A stretch of 64,000 bases of DNA from Streptomyces nigrescens (GTDB taxonomy: Bacteria; Actinomycetota; Actinomycetes; Streptomycetales; Streptomycetaceae): assembly GCA_024349765.1 (NCBI GenBank), contig AP026073.1, positions 3,038,001 through 3,102,000 of the forward strand. Direction: 5' to 3'. Of the stretch, positions 16,575-25,519 are shown one piece after another. Every line of letters begins with the position of its first letter. Position 1 is the first letter of the stretch. The notes under the pieces are model-generated. The model ran no database searches. It was given only the letters and a program-made list of their open reading frames with translations, and was not told where the DNA came from. Both the position numbers and the translations under genes were made by a program.

Positions 16575-16713
16575 TGACACCTGTCCTGCGGCGGCTGAAG
16601 GAGTGAATGCGTGCACTCATTGTGACGCCTTGCGGGCGCGGTCCGAGGCGAGGTGTTCCTACGGTTGAGTCGTCGGTGGGCATTTGTGGCCCCACCCGAA
16701 CGAAGGCTCTTCC

Positions 16714-18735
16714 ATGGACAATAAGATCGTACAAATCAAGATTCACCCTGCCATCGGCATAGCCCGGGTGGGCAACAGCGACCAGCAGTACTACATCGGC
16801 CCGGAATCCCCGGATCAGCCGGCGCTGCCGGCCGGCTCGTACAAGGACGGCTCGGGCAAGGTCATCCGCCAGGCCGCACGATTCCGTCTCTACGGCTACA
16901 ACGCACAGGGGCAGGTCGTCAAGGAGCTCAAACAGGGCCAGGACGGCGTCACGGAAATCAAATGGTCCGTACACCTCGCCAACAAGAAGTCCGCCTGGTA
17001 CCAGTTCCACATTCCGCTCGACATTCCCGAAGCCACCGCCCTGCCGGACACCCAGCGGCGCCGTCGCAATTTCGACGTCAAGGGCGCGGACCGGAAGAAA
17101 CTCGTCATCGACCCCGGCCGCAAGGACATCCGCGCCTCCGCGCAGGAGACCGCCACCTTCGACGGCAAGATCATGGACAAGCCGGTCTCCCTGGGGTCCA
17201 TGTCCACCCAGCCGGACGGCCGCCTCGTGGTCGTCGGCGGCGTCGGCAAGTCGGCGTCCTACGCCACCCCGGAGAAGCCCATCTCCGGTGTCGCCAACAA
17301 CGACACCTGGTACGACGACGTCTCCGACGGCCCGGTCACCGCCGAGGTCACCTTCAACGGTGTCACCAAGCCCGCCACCCCCGGCTGGGTCGTGGTCGCG
17401 CCGCCGCACTACGCCCCCGGCGTGAAGACCGTCCGCACCCTCTACGACGTGCTGCACGACGTGTTCGTCGCCGAGCAGACGCTGGACGTCGTGCAGGAGG
17501 TCTCGTACCCGGACCACATCGAACCCATCCTGCGCCGCTTCTGCGAACTGCAGTGGGTCAACCACGGCTTCGCCACCCAGTTCGGCTGGCAGGGCCCCTA
17601 CGACTTCCTCGACCCGGTCCTGCGCAAGCGGCTCGCCGACCCCGGCAGGTCCAGCGACGAACTCCGCCGCCAGGTCTACGTCCACATGCGCGACTACGAG
17701 CGGGACGGCACCTCGCCGCTGCCCTGGCCGTGGCTCTACGGCGACGCCATGTCCAGCGGCAAACCCACCTCCGTCCGCCAGCACATCACGCTCTCCGCCG
17801 AGCAGGACCGGCTGCTGGCCCTGTGGGCCGAGGGACACTTCACCTCCGGCCCGCCCCGCACCGGCTACCCGGACGTCGACCAGGCGCCGGTCACCGAACA
17901 GCCGGCCCTGCTGGACCGGGGCGCGCTGGAGAACTGCGCCGCCGACGCCTTCCACCCGGGCTGCGAGGTCACCTGGCCGGTGCGCCACAAGACCATGTAC
18001 TCCGAGCCGTTCCGCATCCTGCACCGCACGCAGGAGAACCCCGAACGCGACTACGGTGACGTGCTCAGCCTCCAGGACGTCCTGAGCAAGGACGGGCCGC
18101 TGTACGCCCAGGGCCCCGGCGACCTGACCCGCTGGATGGCCGCCCCCTGGCAGTGCGACACCGCGAGCTGCCGCTCCGGCTACCAGGTGCGGTCCGGGCT
18201 CGGCCCCCGCTACAGCCCCTACCTGCCCACCTTCTGGCCCGCCCAGATGCCCAACCACGTGCTCAAGAAGTCCGACTTCACCATCGTCAACACCAAACCG
18301 ACCGGTGGTGACGACAGCGCCCGGGAGAAGGCGTTCGAGAACCGGGCGGTGTGGCTGCGCGGCCTGCAGGGCACCGACTTCGACAAGCAGCGGCGGCAGA
18401 TGATCGACGACTGGTACAAGTTCGGCATCGTCGAGACCCACGAATACACCGTGGCGGACGGCAAGTTCCCCCGCTACATCCAGGTGGAGTCCGAGCCCGG
18501 ATACCCGCCGGCCCCCGACCACGCCAACCTCATCAACATCCAGGTGCCCGAGGCGGGCGTGCCCCAACTGGCCGGCGCGGCCGACGCCTGGACCGGCGAG
18601 GTCGACGCCCGGTCCGTCTCCGCCATGCTGGTGCAGCAGGCGGTCCAGGAGGTCAAGGAGGCCACCGGCCACGACGAGACGGCGATCGCCGCCGGATACC
18701 TGGAGAAGCTCGACCCCCTGCACGGCTCCCCGTGA
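16714..18735 (+). CDS. LodA/GoxA-type quinoprotein amino-acid oxidase
   Basis: A 673-residue LodA-like oxidase. This family makes a cysteine tryptophylquinone cofactor within its own chain and oxidises an amino acid (lysine in LodA, glycine in GoxA), releasing ammonia and hydrogen peroxide. The N-terminal IKIHPAIGIARVGNS and the C-terminal FWPAQMPNHVL are diagnostic. Trp508 in the latter is the likely cofactor Trp; Cys408, 417, 481 or 486 is the partner, with Cys408 (in LENCAADAFHPG) my best guess. The substrate cannot be inferred. No signal peptide is visible. ATG 16714 follows GAAGG; the frame extends to 16684 without support. The stop overlaps the next start (GTGA). Confidence 0.88.
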   Translation: MDNKIVQIKIHPAIGIARVGNSDQQYYIGPESPDQPALPAGSYKDGSGKVIRQAARFRLYGYNAQGQVVKELKQGQDGVTEIKWSVHLANKKSAWYQFHIPLDIPEATALPDTQRRRRNFDVKGADRKKLVIDPGRKDIRASAQETATFDGKIMDKPVSLGSMSTQPDGRLVVVGGVGKSASYATPEKPISGVANNDTWYDDVSDGPVTAEVTFNGVTKPATPGWVVVAPPHYAPGVKTVRTLYDVLHDVFVAEQTLDVVQEVSYPDHIEPILRRFCELQWVNHGFATQFGWQGPYDFLDPVLRKRLADPGRSSDELRRQVYVHMRDYERDGTSPLPWPWLYGDAMSSGKPTSVRQHITLSAEQDRLLALWAEGHFTSGPPRTGYPDVDQAPVTEQPALLDRGALENCAADAFHPGCEVTWPVRHKTMYSEPFRILHRTQENPERDYGDVLSLQDVLSKDGPLYAQGPGDLTRWMAAPWQCDTASCRSGYQVRSGLGPRYSPYLPTFWPAQMPNHVLKKSDFTIVNTKPTGGDDSAREKAFENRAVWLRGLQGTDFDKQRRQMIDDWYKFGIVETHEYTVADGKFPRYIQVESEPGYPPAPDHANLINIQVPEAGVPQLAGAADAWTGEVDARSVSAMLVQQAVQEVKEATGHDETAIAAGYLEKLDPLHGSP

Positions 18736-19898
18736 GCCCCGCGCCCGCCTACGACGTCGTGGTGGCGGGCGGCGGTCCGGCAGGCTGCGCGGCCGCGCTG
18801 GCCCTCGTACGGGCCGGGCGCATGGTCCTGCTGGCCGACGCCGGTACCGGACCGCCCAAGGCCGGTGAGGCGCTGGTCCCCGTGGCGCGGCTGCTCCTCG
18901 CCGACCTCGGCGTCGACCGAACCGTCCTGGGCACCGGCCATCTGCCCTGCCACGGCAACCTCTCCGCCTGGGGCTCGGCCGAACTGCACGCCGTGGACTT
19001 CCTCCACGACCCGTACGGGCACGGCTGGCACCTCGACCGCGCGCTGTTCGACCGGCGGCTGCGCGCCGCCGCCCGCGCGGCCGGCGCCGACCTCGCCGAA
19101 CGCACCGCCGTACGGCGCCCCGCCCGGCAACCGGACGGCACCTGGCGGCTCGCCCTGCGCGACCGCTCCCGCGGGGACGAGGAACGCACGGTCCGCTGCC
19201 GCTGGGTGGTGGACGCCACCGGGCGGGGTGCGGCGATCGCCGTCCGCGCCGGCGCCCGGCGGCGGACCGGGGACCGGCTGACCGCCCTCCACCTGACCCT
19301 GGACCCGGCCCCGCAGCACACCGCCGACGGCCGTTCCCTGGTCGAGTCCGACCAGGACGGCTGGTGGTACACGGCCCTGCTGCCCTCCCGGCACCGGCTG
19401 GTCGCCTATTTCACCGACCCCGACCTGCCGGTCGCGGGCGGGCACGGCGCCGAGCGGTTCCGGGACCGGCTGCTGGCCACCCGGCACGTCGCCGGCCGGG
19501 CCCGCCCGCACGGGCTCACCCACCTTCCGCCACCCCGCCGGGCCGCCGCGCACACCGCCCATCTGAACCGGGTGCACGGCGACGGCTGGACGGCCGCCGG
19601 TGACGCGGCGGCCGCCTTCGACCCGCTCAGCTCCCAGGGCATCCTCACCGCCCTCTACACCGGGCTGAGTGCGGGCCGGGCGGTCGACGCCCGGCTCCAC
19701 GGCGACCGGACGGCACTGGCCGGGTACGCGGCGCAGGTCGCCACGGCCCGTTCCGCCTACCGGCACGACCACCGCGTCGTGCACGCCCGGGAAACCCGCT
19801 GGCCCGACCGCCCCTTCTGGGCCCGACGGCAGCACCACTCCCACCCGGACGCCCCCCACCCGAACACCCCCCACACGAAAGGCAGGACCTCACCATGA
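18732..19898 (+). CDS. LodB-type FAD-dependent maturation protein
   Basis: A 388-residue flavoprotein monooxygenase of the LodB/GoxB group. The Rossmann motif VVVAGGGPAGCAAALALVRA is at the N-terminus, the FAD ribityl-binding part GDAAAAFDPLSSQGI near residue 295, and it has tryptophan-halogenase-like overall organisation. In known pairs LodB is needed to form the tryptophylquinone of LodA. The start GTG overlaps the lodA stop as GTGA and the end overlaps the next gene as ATGA, so all three genes are translationally coupled. The frame runs back to 18351 inside lodA but that part is a shadow. Confidence 0.87.
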   Translation: MSPAPAYDVVVAGGGPAGCAAALALVRAGRMVLLADAGTGPPKAGEALVPVARLLLADLGVDRTVLGTGHLPCHGNLSAWGSAELHAVDFLHDPYGHGWHLDRALFDRRLRAAARAAGADLAERTAVRRPARQPDGTWRLALRDRSRGDEERTVRCRWVVDATGRGAAIAVRAGARRRTGDRLTALHLTLDPAPQHTADGRSLVESDQDGWWYTALLPSRHRLVAYFTDPDLPVAGGHGAERFRDRLLATRHVAGRARPHGLTHLPPPRRAAAHTAHLNRVHGDGWTAAGDAAAAFDPLSSQGILTALYTGLSAGRAVDARLHGDRTALAGYAAQVATARSAYRHDHRVVHARETRWPDRPFWARRQHHSHPDAPHPNTPHTKGRTSP

Positions 19899-20662: not shown

Positions 20663-23600
20663 TCAGGCGGGCGGGGACCAGGCCGTCTGGACCAGCCGTG
20701 CCTCCCGCTTGCGGTTGACGAACAGCGCCCGCCCCGGCGGGAGGTGGCGCGCGCGGTGGTTGCCGACCAGGTGCCCCTCACCCGGGTCGCCGGCCAACAG
20801 CAGCCCCTGCGCGCCCAGTTCGAGGGTGCGCTGCATCACGGGCTCGAACGACGCCCGGCCGGCGCCCGAGGAACTGCGCGCCAGGATCAGCCGCAGCCCC
20901 AGATCGCGCGCGAACGGCAGGTATTCCAGCAATGGCTGCAGCGGGTTGCCGCTGCTCGTCGCCACCAGGTCGTAGTCGTCGACGAACACGTAGGCGTCCG
21001 GCAGGTCGTACCAGCTGCGCTTGCGCAACTGCTCGGGGGTGACGTCCGGCCCGGGCATCCGGCGGCTCAGCGAACCGGCGAGGCCGGCGATCACCTCCTT
21101 CAACTGCGGTGCCATACCGCAGTAGTGGGAGATATGACTGTCCGGGATGTCGCCCAGGAGGGACCGGCGGTAGTCGGCGACGACCAGCAGGGCCCGCTCC
21201 GCCGGGTGGCGCTCGGCGATCTGCCGGGCCAGCAGCCGCAGCAGCGACGACTTGCCGGACTCGCTCTCGCCGTAGACGACCAGCAGCGGATCGGTCTCGA
21301 AGTCGAGGTGCACCGGGGCGAGCGTGGTCTCGTCGAGGGCGAACGGGATGCCGGTGGCGGGGCCGTCGCCCGGCTGCGGCAGCGCATCGACCGGGAGCAG
21401 GGCCGGCAGCATGCGGACCTTCGGCGCGGTCGGCCCGTTCCAGTGCGTGCGCACCGCGTTCACCAGCTCCGCCAGGGCCTCCCCGAGCGTGTCGGGGTCG
21501 GGGCGGCCGTCCAGCCGCGGCAGCGCGGCGAGGAAGTGGTCCCGGTCGGGCGACAGACCACGGCCGGGCCGCCCGATCGGCACGTTCTCGGCCTGCCGGC
21601 GGTCGACCTCCGACTCCAGCGGGTCGCCCAGGCGCAGTTCCACCCGGTTGAGCAGCAGATCGCGCAGCGCGGGCCGGACCTCGGTGTGCCGGTTGGCGCC
21701 GAGGAGGAGGTGGACGCCCAGACCGAGGCCGCGGCCGGCGATGTCGAGGACGGCGGACTCCAGCTCGTCGTGGTCGGACCGGAACGACGACCAGCCGTCG
21801 ATCACCAGGAACACGTCGCCGTACGCCTCGTCGGGGAAGTGCCCGGCGGCCCGGCGCTTGCGGTAGGTGACCATGGAGTCGAGGGAGTGCGAGCGGAAGA
21901 ACTCCTCGCGGCGGTCGAGGATGCCGGCGACCTCGGAGATCGTCCGCCGCACCTTGTCGGGGTCCAGCCGGGAGGCGATCGTACCGACATGCGGCAGGCC
22001 CTCGACGTCGAGCAACCCGCCGCCCCCGAAGTCGACGCCGTAGAACTGCACTTCACGCGGAGTGTGGGTGAGGGCGAACGCGGCGATCACCGAGCGCAGC
22101 GCGGTCGACTTGCCGGACTGGGGGCCACCGACGAACAGCCCGTGGCCGGCCGCGCCGGAGAAGTCCAGGTACCGCACGTCGCGCCGTTGCTCGTACGGCT
22201 TGTCCACCACCCCCGCGGGCACCACGAGTGCGCTGGGGGCGAACCCGTCCGCGTGCAGGCCCCGTGCGGGCGTCACTGCGAGCGGCGGCAGCAGCTGGTC
22301 GACCGTCGGCGACTCGTCCAGCGGCGGCAGCCACACCTGGTGCGCCGCCGGCCCCCGACCGTCCATCCGCTGCACCAGCACGTCCAGGACGGTGTCGGCG
22401 AGCGCATCCGGATGCTCGGCCGCACGACCGGGAGCCCGGTAGACGCCGGAGACGTACGCGGCCTTGAAACGTGCCATGGCGTCGCCGTCGTGCCGGAGGA
22501 GGCCGGACCCCGGCGCGCTCGGCAGGTGGTAGGCGTCCGGAACGCCGATCGCGGCCCGTGACTCCGCGGCGGAGAACGTCCGCAGCCCGATCCGGTACGA
22601 CAGATAGGTGTCCAGGCCGCGCAGCTTGCCCTCTTCCAGCCGCTGCGAGGCGAGCAGCATGTGCACGCCCAGGGAGCGGCCGATCCGGCCGATCTGGATG
22701 AACATCTCGATGAAGTCGGGCTTCGCGGTGAGCAGTTCGCTGAACTCGTCGACCACCAGGACGAGGGAGGGCAGCGGCATCAGAGGCGCGCCGGCGGCCC
22801 GGGCGTTCTCGTAGGCGGTGACGTTGGGGTAGTTGCCGGCGTCCCGCAACAACTCCTGGCGGCGTTGGAGTTCGCCGGTGATCGCATCCCGCATCCGGTC
22901 GATCAGCGCCATGTCATCGGCGAGATTGGTGATCACGGCCGCGACGTGCGGCAGCAGCGACATGCCGGCGAAGGTCGCGCCGCCCTTGAAGTCCGCCAGG
23001 ATGAAGTTGAGGTTCTCCGAGGAGTGCGTGACCGCCAGCGCCAGCACCAGGGTGCGCAGCAGCTCGGACTTGCCGGAGCCGGTCGAGCCGACGCACAGCC
23101 CGTGCGGGCCCATGCCCTCCAGCGAGGCTTCCTTGAGGTCGAGCATGACGGGCTGCCCGTCCGGCCCGACGCCGATCGGCACCCGCAGCCGCTCCAGCGC
23201 GGTGCGCGGCCGCCACGCCTGGGCGGCGTCGAACGTCCCGGGATCCCCGATCCCCATCAGCTGGGTGAAATCGAGCTGGTCCAGGGTGCGCGAAACGGGC
23301 GGCGCGATGTCGTCGGCCGGCGACCGCGACCAGCCGCCGCGGGCCTGCTGCCCGAGCGCGGCCGCCGCCGTCGCCAGATCGTCCACGGTGGTGAGGCCGT
23401 CCGTCCGGGGCAGGGCGATGTGCACGTACCGCTTCTCGGCCCGGTCGGTGCACAGGGCCACCCCGGGGGTCGCCGGGGTCAGCCGCGCGGCCGGCTCCGG
23501 GTGGACGAGGGAATCGTCGGGGGAGCTGAGCGCCAGCTCGAAGCGGGTCAGCATCACGTCGAGCAGCGACTTGGGCAGGGCCGACCAGTGCGGTGTGGTC

Positions 23601-25012
23601 ACCGCGAGGTGCACACCGTGCCGCAGGCTCGTCGCCCCGATGCCCCGCAGCGCCACCGCGAGGTCCTGGAAGTTGTCGGCGAACTCCGGCCAGCCGTCGA
23701 CCAGCAGGAACAGATCGCCCACCGGCTGGTCGGAGAGTTCGCCGCGGGCCCGCGCACCGCGGTACGCCTCGATGGAGTCGATCGACGGCAGCTGCCCGAA
23801 CTGGTTCTCCCGCAGGGTGTTGAGCCAGACGGCGTGCGCCACCATGCGGTGCACCTCGTCGGGGTTCTGCCGGTGGGCGATGCCGCGGACGTGCGGCAGA
23901 TGCGTCAGCCGGCGCAGTCCGCCGCCGCCGAAGTCGAGGCAGTGGAACTCGACCTCGTGCGGGGTGTGCGTCAGGGCCAGTGACGTCACCAGGGTCTGCA
24001 GCAGCAGCGTCTTGCCGCTGCGCGGACCACCGGCCACCGCGACGTGTCCGGCACCTCCGGACAGGTCCACGCAGTGGGTGCGGACCCGGCGGCCCTCCGT
24101 GCGGTGCGACCGGCCGACCGGGGTGATCAGGCGGCCGCTGTCCCGCCAGTCCACCGCCGACAGCCCGCGCTCCTCGGTCACCGTCAGCGGCGGCAGCAAC
24201 TGGTCCAGCGTGGTCAGGGGAGACGGGCCCTCGGTCTCGGTGAGGCTCGGGAACGGCCGGTGCGCGTGCGCGGCCGCCTTCGACAGTCGCAGCCGGTTGC
24301 CGCCCTGGATGTCGCTGCCGAAGAACGTCGGCTTCTGCTCATGGGTACGGGCGACCACCTCGGCCACGTACTGGTACAGCTCCTGCGCCGTGACCCAGCC
24401 GTCCTCGTCGAGGTCCGCCCGGCCCGTGGTGAGGCCGTCGATCACCGCGCGGGTGAAGACCGAGCTCCACTCGGCCGCGCCGGCCCCCGGGGTCTCGTCC
24501 TCCAGGGCCTCCTGGACGGAGTTGGCCGCGGTGATCACATAGCTGCCGCGGTCGACGAACTGCCGGGGGATGTCCTCGGTGTCCGCACCGCCCTTGGACG
24601 CACCGAACGCACCGGAGAAGCAGCAGTCCAGCAGGGCGATCTTCTGTTTGGCCCGGCTGTACTCCATCGACTCCTTGATGAACTCCGCCGAGACCGAGCT
24701 GGCCCGGACCATCTCACGGCTGGACCTGACGGTCGCGAAGTGCAGCCGGCCGCGGCCGTCCTTCAGCCCGTGGCAGGAGAGATAGACCAGGGCGAGGTCG
24801 ACCCCGCGGGCCTGGAAGAGCCGCTCGACGGCCTCCTCGATGACGGCCTTCGACTCGTCGACCAGCACCTGGACGGAATCGAACTGCCCGACGTCGGGGT
24901 CCTCGAGGAGCGCGGCCAGCTTCCGGGCGTCGTGCACCGGCGAACGCAGCTGAGGGAGCGTGTCGTCGAGATAGCGCTCGGTGGCGATGAGCAGGGCACG
25001 CCGTTCACCCAC
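20663..25012 (-). CDS. Caspase (EACC1-associated type) fused to four FtsK/EccC-type ATPase modules
   Basis: A 1449-residue soluble protein. Residues 1-240 form a C14 caspase/metacaspase-like domain with catalytic His81 (YLSCHG) and Cys131 (LLDCCFSG). Residues 200-211 (DLDEDGWVTAQE) match the 12-residue EF-hand loop, so calcium control is possible. Four P-loop modules follow, with Walker A motifs at 328 (GGPRSGKT), 642 (GSTGSGKS), 962 (GGPQSGKS) and 1248 (GESESGKS). Only the second has a standard Walker B (VLVVDEFSE); the others have DG or DD. The order looks like EccC of type VII secretion with an extra D2-like copy before D1, and without the EccC membrane helices. GTG 25012 follows GGGAGG. 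It lies 51 bases downstream of the EACC1 gene. It is probably a conflict/suicide effector with an ATPase sensor or switch; the target is unknown. Confidence 0.9.
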   Translation of the reverse strand: MGERRALLIATERYLDDTLPQLRSPVHDARKLAALLEDPDVGQFDSVQVLVDESKAVIEEAVERLFQARGVDLALVYLSCHGLKDGRGRLHFATVRSSREMVRASSVSAEFIKESMEYSRAKQKIALLDCCFSGAFGASKGGADTEDIPRQFVDRGSYVITAANSVQEALEDETPGAGAAEWSSVFTRAVIDGLTTGRADLDEDGWVTAQELYQYVAEVVARTHEQKPTFFGSDIQGGNRLRLSKAAAHAHRPFPSLTETEGPSPLTTLDQLLPPLTVTEERGLSAVDWRDSGRLITPVGRSHRTEGRRVRTHCVDLSGGAGHVAVAGGPRSGKTLLLQTLVTSLALTHTPHEVEFHCLDFGGGGLRRLTHLPHVRGIAHRQNPDEVHRMVAHAVWLNTLRENQFGQLPSIDSIEAYRGARARGELSDQPVGDLFLLVDGWPEFADNFQDLAVALRGIGATSLRHGVHLAVTTPHWSALPKSLLDVMLTRFELALSSPDDSLVHPEPAARLTPATPGVALCTDRAEKRYVHIALPRTDGLTTVDDLATAAAALGQQARGGWSRSPADDIAPPVSRTLDQLDFTQLMGIGDPGTFDAAQAWRPRTALERLRVPIGVGPDGQPVMLDLKEASLEGMGPHGLCVGSTGSGKSELLRTLVLALAVTHSSENLNFILADFKGGATFAGMSLLPHVAAVITNLADDMALIDRMRDAITGELQRRQELLRDAGNYPNVTAYENARAAGAPLMPLPSLVLVVDEFSELLTAKPDFIEMFIQIGRIGRSLGVHMLLASQRLEEGKLRGLDTYLSYRIGLRTFSAAESRAAIGVPDAYHLPSAPGSGLLRHDGDAMARFKAAYVSGVYRAPGRAAEHPDALADTVLDVLVQRMDGRGPAAHQVWLPPLDESPTVDQLLPPLAVTPARGLHADGFAPSALVVPAGVVDKPYEQRRDVRYLDFSGAAGHGLFVGGPQSGKSTALRSVIAAFALTHTPREVQFYGVDFGGGGLLDVEGLPHVGTIASRLDPDKVRRTISEVAGILDRREEFFRSHSLDSMVTYRKRRAAGHFPDEAYGDVFLVIDGWSSFRSDHDELESAVLDIAGRGLGLGVHLLLGANRHTEVRPALRDLLLNRVELRLGDPLESEVDRRQAENVPIGRPGRGLSPDRDHFLAALPRLDGRPDPDTLGEALAELVNAVRTHWNGPTAPKVRMLPALLPVDALPQPGDGPATGIPFALDETTLAPVHLDFETDPLLVVYGESESGKSSLLRLLARQIAERHPAERALLVVADYRRSLLGDIPDSHISHYCGMAPQLKEVIAGLAGSLSRRMPGPDVTPEQLRKRSWYDLPDAYVFVDDYDLVATSSGNPLQPLLEYLPFARDLGLRLILARSSSGAGRASFEPVMQRTLELGAQGLLLAGDPGEGHLVGNHRARHLPPGRALFVNRKREARLVQTAWSPPA

Positions 25013-25063
25013 CCGAACCTCCCGCGCTCACCGCCGCCCGGCCGACAGCATGGTGACGGACCA

Positions 25064-25519
25064 TCAGGCGCCTCCCGCCGACCCCTCCAGGGCCGCCGGT
25101 GCCGGCGGTTCCGACGTCGGTGCGGTGCCCGCGCCGGACCCGTCGTCGGCGGCCAGGGCCTGGATCCAGGCCTCCACCACCGCCTCCTGCGTCTTCTTCG
25201 AGACCCCCTCGATCTCCAACCGCCGCTCCCCGCTGACCAGCACGGCCTTGCGGGCCCCGCTGCGCTTGATCCACTCCCGCACCACGAGCGTCAGGGACCG
25301 CAGCGCGGCGACCGAGAACCCTCCGCTGACCACCAGTGTCGTGAGCGACGACAACACCCCGCTCTTGCCGCCCACCGCCCCGGGCTCCTGCCCGCGCGCC
25401 ACATCGGGCAGATCCAGCGCCAGCAACTCCTCCAGGAGCCCTCGCGTCAGTTCGTCCAGTTCCTGCGCATCGGCGTCCTCGTCGTGCACGACGACGGTGA
25501 CGTCCCCCGTGATCGTCAT
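25064..25519 (-). CDS. Effector-associated constant component (EACC1)-type small protein
   Basis: A 151-residue protein. Segments in order are an N-terminal strand TITGDVTVVVHDEDADAQEL, an acidic helix, a hydrophobic segment LSSLTTLVVSGGFSVAALRS, and a compact part RKAVLVSGERRLEIEGVSKK. The tail is Ala/Pro/Ser-rich. This matches my recollection of the EACC1 family, small proteins constantly encoded beside variable effectors such as caspases in actinobacterial conflict systems. ATG 25519 is preceded by AAGGGTGG. It is the first gene of a two-gene operon with the caspase-ATPase. It may tether or restrain the effector; that is inference. Confidence 0.82.
   Translation of the reverse strand: MTITGDVTVVVHDEDADAQELDELTRGLLEELLALDLPDVARGQEPGAVGGKSGVLSSLTTLVVSGGFSVAALRSLTLVVREWIKRSGARKAVLVSGERRLEIEGVSKKTQEAVVEAWIQALAADDGSGAGTAPTSEPPAPAALEGSAGGA

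What the first reader, a model, noticed from the sequence alone, without database searches (positions are those of the whole stretch)
20663..25519. EACC1-linked caspase fused to a soluble, membrane-anchor-free EccC-type ATPase
One protein joins a caspase (His81/Cys131) to four FtsK/EccC-like P-loop modules, directly after a small EACC1-type gene. EccC is normally the membrane motor of type VII secretion; here its transmembrane part is replaced by a caspase and no ESX substrate or membrane component is nearby. This fits an NTP-controlled cell-suicide or conflict device in which the ATPase senses a signal and releases the caspase. Family names are from memory.
Basis: partly seen in the sequence, partly recalled or inferred. 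Interest (0 to 1): 0.85.

Follow-up and report, generated by a model that had tools for sequence, protein, structure and literature searches.

The report
Caspase fused to secretion-motor copy
A soil bacterium carries a protein-cutting enzyme of the cell-death (caspase) type joined to a copy of the cell's own type VII secretion motor; it looks like a variant of a known two-gene conflict system in which the motor copy may act as the trigger, but what sets it off and what it cuts are unknown.

Summary
On the minus strand, window 25012-20663 encodes one 1449-aa protein: an EACC1-associated caspase (NF047832, 168.6 bits, cut-off 140), then four FtsK/EccC modules; 25519-25064 encodes a distant EACC1 relative. 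The frame is known: System 4 (EACC1-caspase) of Kaur et al. 2020. In 36 aligned proteins (window included; Streptomyces and two unnamed genus codes) His81, Cys131 and all four Walker A lysines are invariant, and an EACC1-like ORF adjoins 39 of 40 loci. In 35 carrier genomes no EccB gene lies within 220 kb on the fusion's contig. New here: the caspase head is conserved, but the EccC tails are not one clade apart from true ESX motors (AU p 1e-55), and in five hosts tail dN/dS is 0.38-0.55 against 0.08-0.16 for the true motor. I read the tail as a ligand-gated ATPase platform derived from ESX motors, possibly a decoy, that clusters and activates the caspase. Trigger, substrates and outcome are untested.

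The parts
25064..25519 (-). Small EACC1-like protein, 151 aa; first gene of the pair
   Evidence: distant relation to PF19953 members; PF19953 itself does not call it
20663..25012 (-). Caspase-EccC fusion protein, 1449 aa, GTG start; whole gene
24317..25012 (-). Caspase domain (residues 1-232), EACC1-associated type
   Evidence: NF047832 168.6 bits; best-ranked caspase fold among the 50 listed matches is the MALT1 paracaspase, E 2.2e-10
24770..24772 (-). Catalytic His81
   Evidence: H in 36 of 36
24620..24622 (-). Catalytic Cys131 (Asp129, also 36 of 36, lies two residues before it)
24200..24316 (-). Linker, residues 233-271, low model confidence (candidate self-cleavage region, inference only)
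   Evidence: residues 233-274 pLDDT under 50
23393..24199 (-). Extra D2-type EccC module (D2'), residues 272-540; Walker A GGPRSGKT, Walker B LLVDGW
   Evidence: EccCb profile positions 29-319 at 254.9 bits; T. curvata EccC by fold, E 1.5e-25
22418..23284 (-). EccC D1 module, residues 577-865; Walker A GSTGSGKS, Walker B VVDEF, Arg706
   Evidence: TIGR03924 positions 389-673; conservation
21488..22336 (-). WLPPL linker motif and EccC D2 module, residues 893-1175
   Evidence: TIGR03925
20678..21445 (-). EccC D3 module, residues 1190-1445 (equivalent of the module that binds EsxB in ESX motors)
   Evidence: TIGR03925; PDB 4n1a, 4nh0

Best explanation
This is an EACC1-caspase two-gene conflict system (System 4 of Kaur et al. 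2020) whose variable C-terminal half is a soluble copy of the ESX secretion motor EccC. SHOWN BY SEQUENCE: intact caspase dyad, four intact Walker A sites, a D1 site with the conserved Glu and Arg, the WLPPL linker, no membrane anchor, an adjoining EACC1-like partner, a slowly changing protease head, and a faster-changing tail that is mixed with true ESX motors in the tree. INFERRED: the tail keeps the motor's switch. At rest, D1 is held inactive by the linker, as in T. curvata EccC. A protein with a C-terminal signal that fits the D3 pocket (a WXG100-type or other ESX-directed protein, foreign or displaced) binds, relieves inhibition and drives ATP-dependent ring formation. The ring brings up to six caspase heads together, with the D2' layer as spacer or gate; the heads activate by proximity and cut targets, probably after Arg/Lys. 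EACC1 tunes the threshold or tethers the complex to the membrane. The outcome would be death or arrest of the compartment.
For: Domain calls. Same order in 36 aligned proteins, window included; H81, C131, D129, K334, K648, K968, K1254 and R706 in 36 of 36; D1 Walker B Glu in 33 of 36. EACC1-like ORF adjoining 39 of 40 loci. Selection over 21 pairs: caspase dN/dS 0.16, D2' 0.22, D1 0.37, D2 0.51, D3 0.48; in five hosts canonical EccC D1-D3 0.08-0.16 against 0.38-0.55 for the tail. Tails are not one clade apart from true EccC (73, 79, 83). The switch of T. curvata EccC (linker autoinhibition, EsxB signal in the D3 pocket, hexamer model) is cited from passages and section 8 of PMC6954902. Caspase fold nearest to MALT1; that MALT1 is switched on by clustering is recalled.
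Against: No trigger, substrate or activity is shown. High tail dN/dS could be relaxed constraint, not a changing ligand; dS also differs (0.35-0.37 for the tail, 0.17-0.18 for the canonical gene in the same hosts), so the two genes are not a clean pair. The D3 pocket was not compared residue by residue. The EACC1 identity is remote, and two of the 11 EACC1-like proteins tested (L016, L019) score at or below the best shuffle. Kaur et al. read such C-terminal parts as released effectors, not sensors. One clade for the ten Streptomyces tails apart from canonical EccC is not rejected (AU p 0.073), and one clade for the nine g13 tails is only weakly rejected (p 0.040). Three of 36 lack the D1 Walker B Glu.
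Confidence: 0.4

Rival explanations
1. The EccC tail is the effector, not the sensor: activation through EACC1 lets the caspase cut the linker and release a free EccC ring that poisons the host's ESX machine or pumps macromolecules (the published System 4 logic).
For: Kaur et al. propose autoproteolytic effector release for System 4. The linker 233-271 is of low model confidence and holds basic residues. The tail is close to the host motor (71.6% over 905 aligned positions), which suits mixed rings.
Against: Kaur et al. predict several enzymatic effector domains of the related VMAP ternary system, FtsK included, to be inactive (passage); here all Walker A sites are intact. No cleavage site was tested. 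The tail's faster change is less expected for a domain that must co-assemble with a conserved motor.
Confidence: 0.25
2. An accessory of the host's own type VII secretion: a soluble EccC paralogue that captures ESX substrates and trims or destroys them with the caspase.
For: The tail keeps D1-D3 architecture and is close to the canonical motor; EccB was found in 34 of 35 carrier genomes searched.
Against: No EccB within 220 kb on the fusion's contig in those 35 genomes. Full-span fusions in 8 of 392 genomes of the genus, whereas 269 of 392 have some match at E 1e-60, most of those listed being EccC-like D2 hits. The constant partner is EACC1-like, not an ESX gene.
Confidence: 0.15
3. A developmental or housekeeping signalling protease in filamentous actinobacteria, with the ATPase as a plain oligomerisation module and no link to ESX ligands or conflict.
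For: Purifying selection on the caspase. In 11 of 40 loci the pair follows relatives of the L136 genes called SCO2524 and SCO2523 family (in 9 also SCO2522 and in 9 SCO2521 relatives), a cluster of unknown role.
Against: Patchy distribution, a remnant and frame-broken copies in some genomes, mixing of tails with true motors.
Confidence: 0.15

Closest known systems
System 4, EACC1-caspase two-gene conflict system (Kaur, Burroughs, Iyer, Aravind 2020, PMC7159879)
   Same: 5' EACC1-type gene, 3' gene with N-terminal caspase and a variable C-terminal part; actinobacteria with multicellular habit
   Different: C-terminal part is an ESX motor D1-D3 plus an extra D2 copy. The text passages read name no FtsK or EccC for this system (FtsK is named for the VMAP ternary system); Figure 7C and the source data were not seen.
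EccC, ATPase of actinobacterial type VII secretion (T. curvata 4NH0/4N1A)
   Same: D1-D2-D3 with all Walker A sites, catalytic Glu, Arg and WLPPL linker; 71.6% identity to the host's own EccC over 905 aligned positions
   Different: No TM anchor, the part before D1 is a caspase plus D2', no EccB nearby, higher dN/dS
MALT1 paracaspase
   Same: Best-ranked caspase fold among the 50 listed matches (E 2.2e-10, 20% identity)
   Different: Coupled to an FtsK-type ATPase instead of death and Ig domains (MALT1 make-up recalled)

Membership tests
EACC1-caspase System 4 | EACC1 gene immediately 5' of the caspase gene, same strand | tested here: met
   an EACC1-like ORF adjoins 39 of 40 loci: upstream in 37 (10 of 10 Streptomyces loci with the window, 27 of 30 others), downstream in 2 (L136, L137), none found in 1 (L134)
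EACC1-caspase System 4 | Small protein belongs to EACC1 (PF19953) | tested here: inconclusive
   PF19953 does not call it. A profile of 10 members gives it 19.5 bits against 11.7 for the best of 2200 shuffles; of 11 relatives tested (window included), 9 are clearly above, L016 is at 11.8 and L019 is not above. hhalign probability 94.8% and 87.4%
EACC1-caspase System 4 | Caspase of EACC1-associated type (NF047832) | tested here: met
   168.6 bits on the protein, 173.5 on the genome; cut-off 140
EACC1-caspase System 4 | Catalytic His and Cys | tested here: met
   36 of 36
EACC1-caspase System 4 | EACC1 has a TM helix with a patch of small residues | tested here: inconclusive
   Hydropathy peak 1.8 over VSGGFS in the window protein; none over threshold in L075. 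The AlphaFold2 model (mean pLDDT 69.8) draws a strand and a helix there
EACC1-caspase System 4 | Acts against invaders | not testable with these tools
   no experiment
EccC of type VII secretion | EccC D1-D3 sequence | tested here: met
   TIGR03925 1104 bits, TIGR03924 640.9 bits, both above cut-off
EccC of type VII secretion | N-terminal TM anchor | tested here: not met
   No 19-residue hydropathy segment over 1.6 in the window protein; the two host EccCs have one near the N terminus. Of six fusion proteins checked, L015 and L131 show one inside an ATPase module, as does host EccC_C2, so the method also flags core segments
EccC of type VII secretion | Encoded with other ESX membrane genes | tested here: not met
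   EccB: 91 places in 34 of 35 carrier genomes searched, none within 220 kb on the fusion's contig; the g13 genomes G1367, G1390, G1404 and G1496 and the genome of L019 were not searched; many genomes are drafts. Ten window neighbours without an ESX family

The most novel reading that the evidence does not exclude
An integrated decoy in bacteria: the caspase carries a copy of the host's own type VII secretion motor as bait. The tail keeps the motor's ligand-gated ATPase switch but is freed from secretion, drawn from or homogenised with ESX motors more than once, and changes fast under contact with invaders (phage, plasmid or rival-toxin proteins) that bind or mimic ESX cargo; binding closes the ring and fires the caspase.
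Probability: 0.18. Interest if true: 0.88.

Novelty: new variant of a known kind. Interest (0 to 1): 0.55.

Why it matters
System 4 is a prediction from sequence in what I read, and its triggers are unknown. A tail whose parent (EccC) has solved structures and a known ligand pocket gives a concrete candidate trigger and a direct biochemical test of how a bacterial EACC1-caspase is switched on. If the decoy reading holds, it would be a bacterial parallel to integrated decoys of plant immune receptors (recalled), built on a secretion motor.

Tried and rejected
Phage carriage: viral-contig scan with A1, 33 stretches matched a pattern, none encoded a relative. Plasmid carriage: 0 of 120 matching plasmid records cover 80% of residues 1-571; the 15 listed match only residues 281-536, the D2-type module. 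EACC1 fold search in PDB: no match at E 0.001 or better, so no function is drawn from it. PADLOC hits (mad8, SspH and others) match the FtsK part only and were not taken as membership. A simple 'EccC with the membrane part swapped for a caspase' was rejected because the module after the caspase is D2-type. A recent gene conversion from the host motor was not supported: the tail is 71.6%, not near 100%, identical to it.

Literature: EACC1 (13 papers, all listed, 10 of 1,867 listed), caspase with EccC/FtsK (20 of 26 listed, none found, 15 of 23 listed), caspase-like/anti-phage/type VII (3 of 3), SCO2521-2524 (1 paper, not opened), EccC of T. curvata (5 of 5). No title or abstract start in these listings describes a caspase-EccC protein; only openly licensed PMC papers were searched and no supplements.

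Rows dropped or not given: the tail tree used 20 of the 36 fusion proteins and 16 of the 17 canonical EccC frames found (L159, cut short, was left out; L142, L146, L152, L155 and L156 yielded none). The head tree used the same 20 of 36, the D2 tree 16 of 36 with 37 canonical D2 rows. For the EACC1 profile, 10 of 15 fetched PF19953 hits were kept; the first set held some wrongly chosen frames. The head and D2 trees carry long-branch warnings. The AU groups were named after the tail tree had been seen. Genome samples overlap (the own genome is in all).
Full report
WHAT IS THERE. Both genes lie on the minus strand. The first, 25519-25064, encodes 151 aa; the second starts after 51 nt at 25012 (GTG) and ends at 20663, 1449 aa. 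Pfam and NCBIfam place a caspase at residues 4-232 (PF00656 47.1 bits; NF047832 'caspase, EACC1-associated type' 168.6 bits over 4-221, cut-off 140) and EccC sequence after it (TIGR03924 640.9 bits, TIGR03925 1104 bits). The best solved relative is the EccC of Thermomonospora curvata (4nh0, 4n1a). The window lies in a 9.33-Mb, two-contig genome; the nearest named orthologue is in Streptomyces sp. NRRL S-337 (96% over the 704 residues searched).

ANATOMY. The module after the caspase scores 254.9 bits against EccCb positions 29-319 (D2), while the next module scores 109.1 and matches EccCa positions 389-673 (D1). The order is therefore caspase - D2' - D1 - D2 - D3. Against the host's canonical EccC (1318 aa, L064) the tail's alignment begins at EccC residue 408, and the best EccCa stretch starts at profile position 389, so the part before D1, TM segment included, appears replaced. 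An AlphaFold2 model of residues 1-571 (mean pLDDT 68.6, pTM 0.49) matches T. curvata EccC ATPases 2/3 (E 1.5e-25, 41% identity) and the MALT1 paracaspase (E 2.2e-10, 20% identity). Residues 233-274 are of low confidence.

HOMOLOGUES. Six named Streptomyces orthologues came from the genome-contig scan (7 loci returned, one a weak Citrobacter hit). A search of 392 genomes of the genus gave full-span hits in 8, own genome included: five at 83-100% and three at 37-38% identity. Four of the eight, and G508, lie on contigs of the same length as those of named orthologues; for G508 a shared stretch was also checked. They are counted once. Full-span hits in wider samples: order 2 of 391, phylum 2 of 396 (6 matched at the threshold), class 3 of 394 (17 matched), and in the genus coded g13, 27 of 150 (29 matched). 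The samples overlap. Of 29 g13 loci fetched (28 genomes; G1404 was not fetched), 25 give one long frame (L112 runs off its contig), two appear frame-broken (L123, L138), one is a remnant (L135) and one is cut by a contig end (L140). The window's protein, nine other Streptomyces-genus proteins, 25 from g13 and one from a third genus code (L139) make the 36-row alignment.

ACTIVE SITES. His81, Gly82, Asp129, Cys131, the Walker A Lys of all four modules and Arg706 in D1 are present in 36 of 36; the D1 Walker B Glu in 33 of 36 (Gly in 2, Asp in 1), and the Asp before it in 28 of 36 with Glu in the other 8. By alignment to 4nh0, Arg706 and Glu756 fall on what I recall as R543 and E593 of T. curvata EccC; those numbers are recalled, not read. 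The invariant Asp129 suggests Arg/Lys at P1, as in paracaspases and metacaspases (recalled).

PARTNER. The small protein is not called by PF19953. A profile of 10 proteins over the PF19953 cut-off scores it 19.5 bits, the best of 2200 shuffles 11.7; of the 11 EACC1-like proteins tested, nine are clearly above that, L016 is at 11.8 and L019 is not above. hhalign gives 94.8% with the first member set, which held some wrongly chosen frames, and 87.4% with the cleaned set. I call it a distant EACC1 relative. An EACC1-like ORF adjoins 39 of 40 loci: 10 of 10 Streptomyces-genus loci upstream, 27 of 30 others upstream (L075 was in the model), two downstream (L136, L137), none found in L134. Its model is of modest confidence (pLDDT 69.8) and found no PDB match at E 0.001. 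Hydropathy of about 1.8 would allow a membrane helix, but the model shows a strand and a helix there, so membrane insertion stays open.

SURROUNDINGS. Ten window neighbours hold LodA domains, flavin and GMC oxidoreductases, a WYL regulator and others, no ESX family. EccB occurs at 91 places in 34 of 35 carrier genomes (none in G377); on contigs shared with the fusion the nearest is 220 kb away (distances were computed for the seven genomes where a contig is shared, the others compared by contig number). Some fusion contigs are short (L055 9.6 kb), so absence there says less. The own genome has canonical EccCs and EccB on both contigs. Beyond the EACC1-like ORF the commonest neighbour clusters occur in 11 of 40 loci.

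HEAD AND TAIL DIFFER. In the head tree (caspase plus D2', 20 proteins) the three main groups are each well supported, but their branching is not resolved (59/34). D2' modules form one group at 81/61. The tails (D1-D3) do not: 20 tails among 16 canonical EccCs need four label changes, and well-supported branches force four. Holding all tails together costs 474.9 log-likelihood units (AU p 1e-55; the group was named after the tree was seen). Seven close Streptomyces tails sit with five copies of the conserved Streptomyces motor (12 rows, 100/99), and two g13 tails (L120, L122) sit with two g13 motors (95/97). Against this: one clade for all ten Streptomyces tails apart from the motor is not rejected (p 0.073), and one clade for the nine g13 tails is only weakly rejected (p 0.040). 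So tails of more than one kind of origin overall are firm; the number of replacements is not.

RATES. Over 21 pairs of close orthologues dN/dS rises along the protein: caspase 0.16, D2' 0.22, D1 0.37, D2 0.51, D3 0.48; the EACC1-like protein 0.51. For five hosts (10 pairs), tail modules give 0.38, 0.47 and 0.55 and the canonical EccC modules 0.08, 0.16 and 0.13 (simple Nei-Gojobori counts). dS also differs, 0.35-0.37 for the tail and 0.17-0.18 for the canonical gene, so codon constraint or exchange may play in. The head behaves as a constant protease; the tail has three to five times the dN/dS of the motor it resembles while keeping every Walker A Lys.

READING. Kaur et al. describe System 4: an EACC1 gene followed by a caspase with up to about 50 alternative C-terminal domains (I read the abstract, section 3 part 10 and passages). 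FtsK is named there for the VMAP ternary systems, not for System 4; Figure 7C and source data were not seen. A follow-up paper (PMC8195603, passages) mentions nSTAND1 in EACC1 systems. In EccC the linker inhibits the ATPase and the D3 pocket binds the C-terminal signal of EsxB, with hexamer models (PMC6954902, passages and section 8; Rosenberg et al. 2015 not read). Passages of PMC8401907 and PMC3482391 added nothing on this fusion. Joined together, the simplest device is a caspase whose clustering is set by an ESX-type, ligand-gated ATPase. Shown: anatomy, conservation, partner, rates, mixed tails. Inferred: ligand, ring, activation, target, cell fate.

VERDICT. A new variant of a known kind. 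The fusion is real, conserved in parts of the actinobacteria sampled and probably active as protease and ATPase (inference from conserved sites). The head/tail pattern is the new and testable part. Function remains a prediction.

Noticed in passing
L127-L134, L136, L137, L140 (11 loci): The EACC1-like/caspase-EccC pair lies downstream of a shared gene set; scanned in L136 only, these are SCO2524, SCO2523 (variant P-loop), SCO2522 and SCO2521 family proteins, of unknown role (relatives of the last two in 9 loci each). L136 also has a family 1 encapsulin shell gene.
   Followed up: partly
own genome C1:4012996-4013981 (L066) and C1:1844833-1845824 (L067): Two further EACC1-caspase pairs with open frames too short for an EccC tail of this kind (480 and 920 aa): NF047832 240.7 and 138.7 bits; the second EACC1 is weak at 11.3 bits.
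   Followed up: no
L135, L123, L138: A remnant second copy of the fusion gene and two apparently frame-broken copies in g13 genomes, each with an EACC1-like ORF still in front.
   Followed up: no
non-Streptomyces homologues, D1 Walker B: Asp to Glu at the first Walker B acid in 8 of 36 proteins, all outside the ten Streptomyces rows.
   Followed up: no
own genome C2:493632-497630 (L065): A second canonical-type EccC (1332 aa) on the 1.07-Mb contig C2, with an EccB hit about 1.5 kb further on.
   Followed up: partly
window 16684-19898 (+): LodA-type oxidase domains and a flavin oxidoreductase (LodB-like by position, recalled), downstream of the fusion on the other strand.
   Followed up: no
window 25064-25519 (-): The EACC1 segment described in print as a TM helix is modelled here as a strand followed by a helix in a small alpha+beta fold (mean pLDDT 69.8); whether EACC1 is really membrane-inserted is open.
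   Followed up: partly
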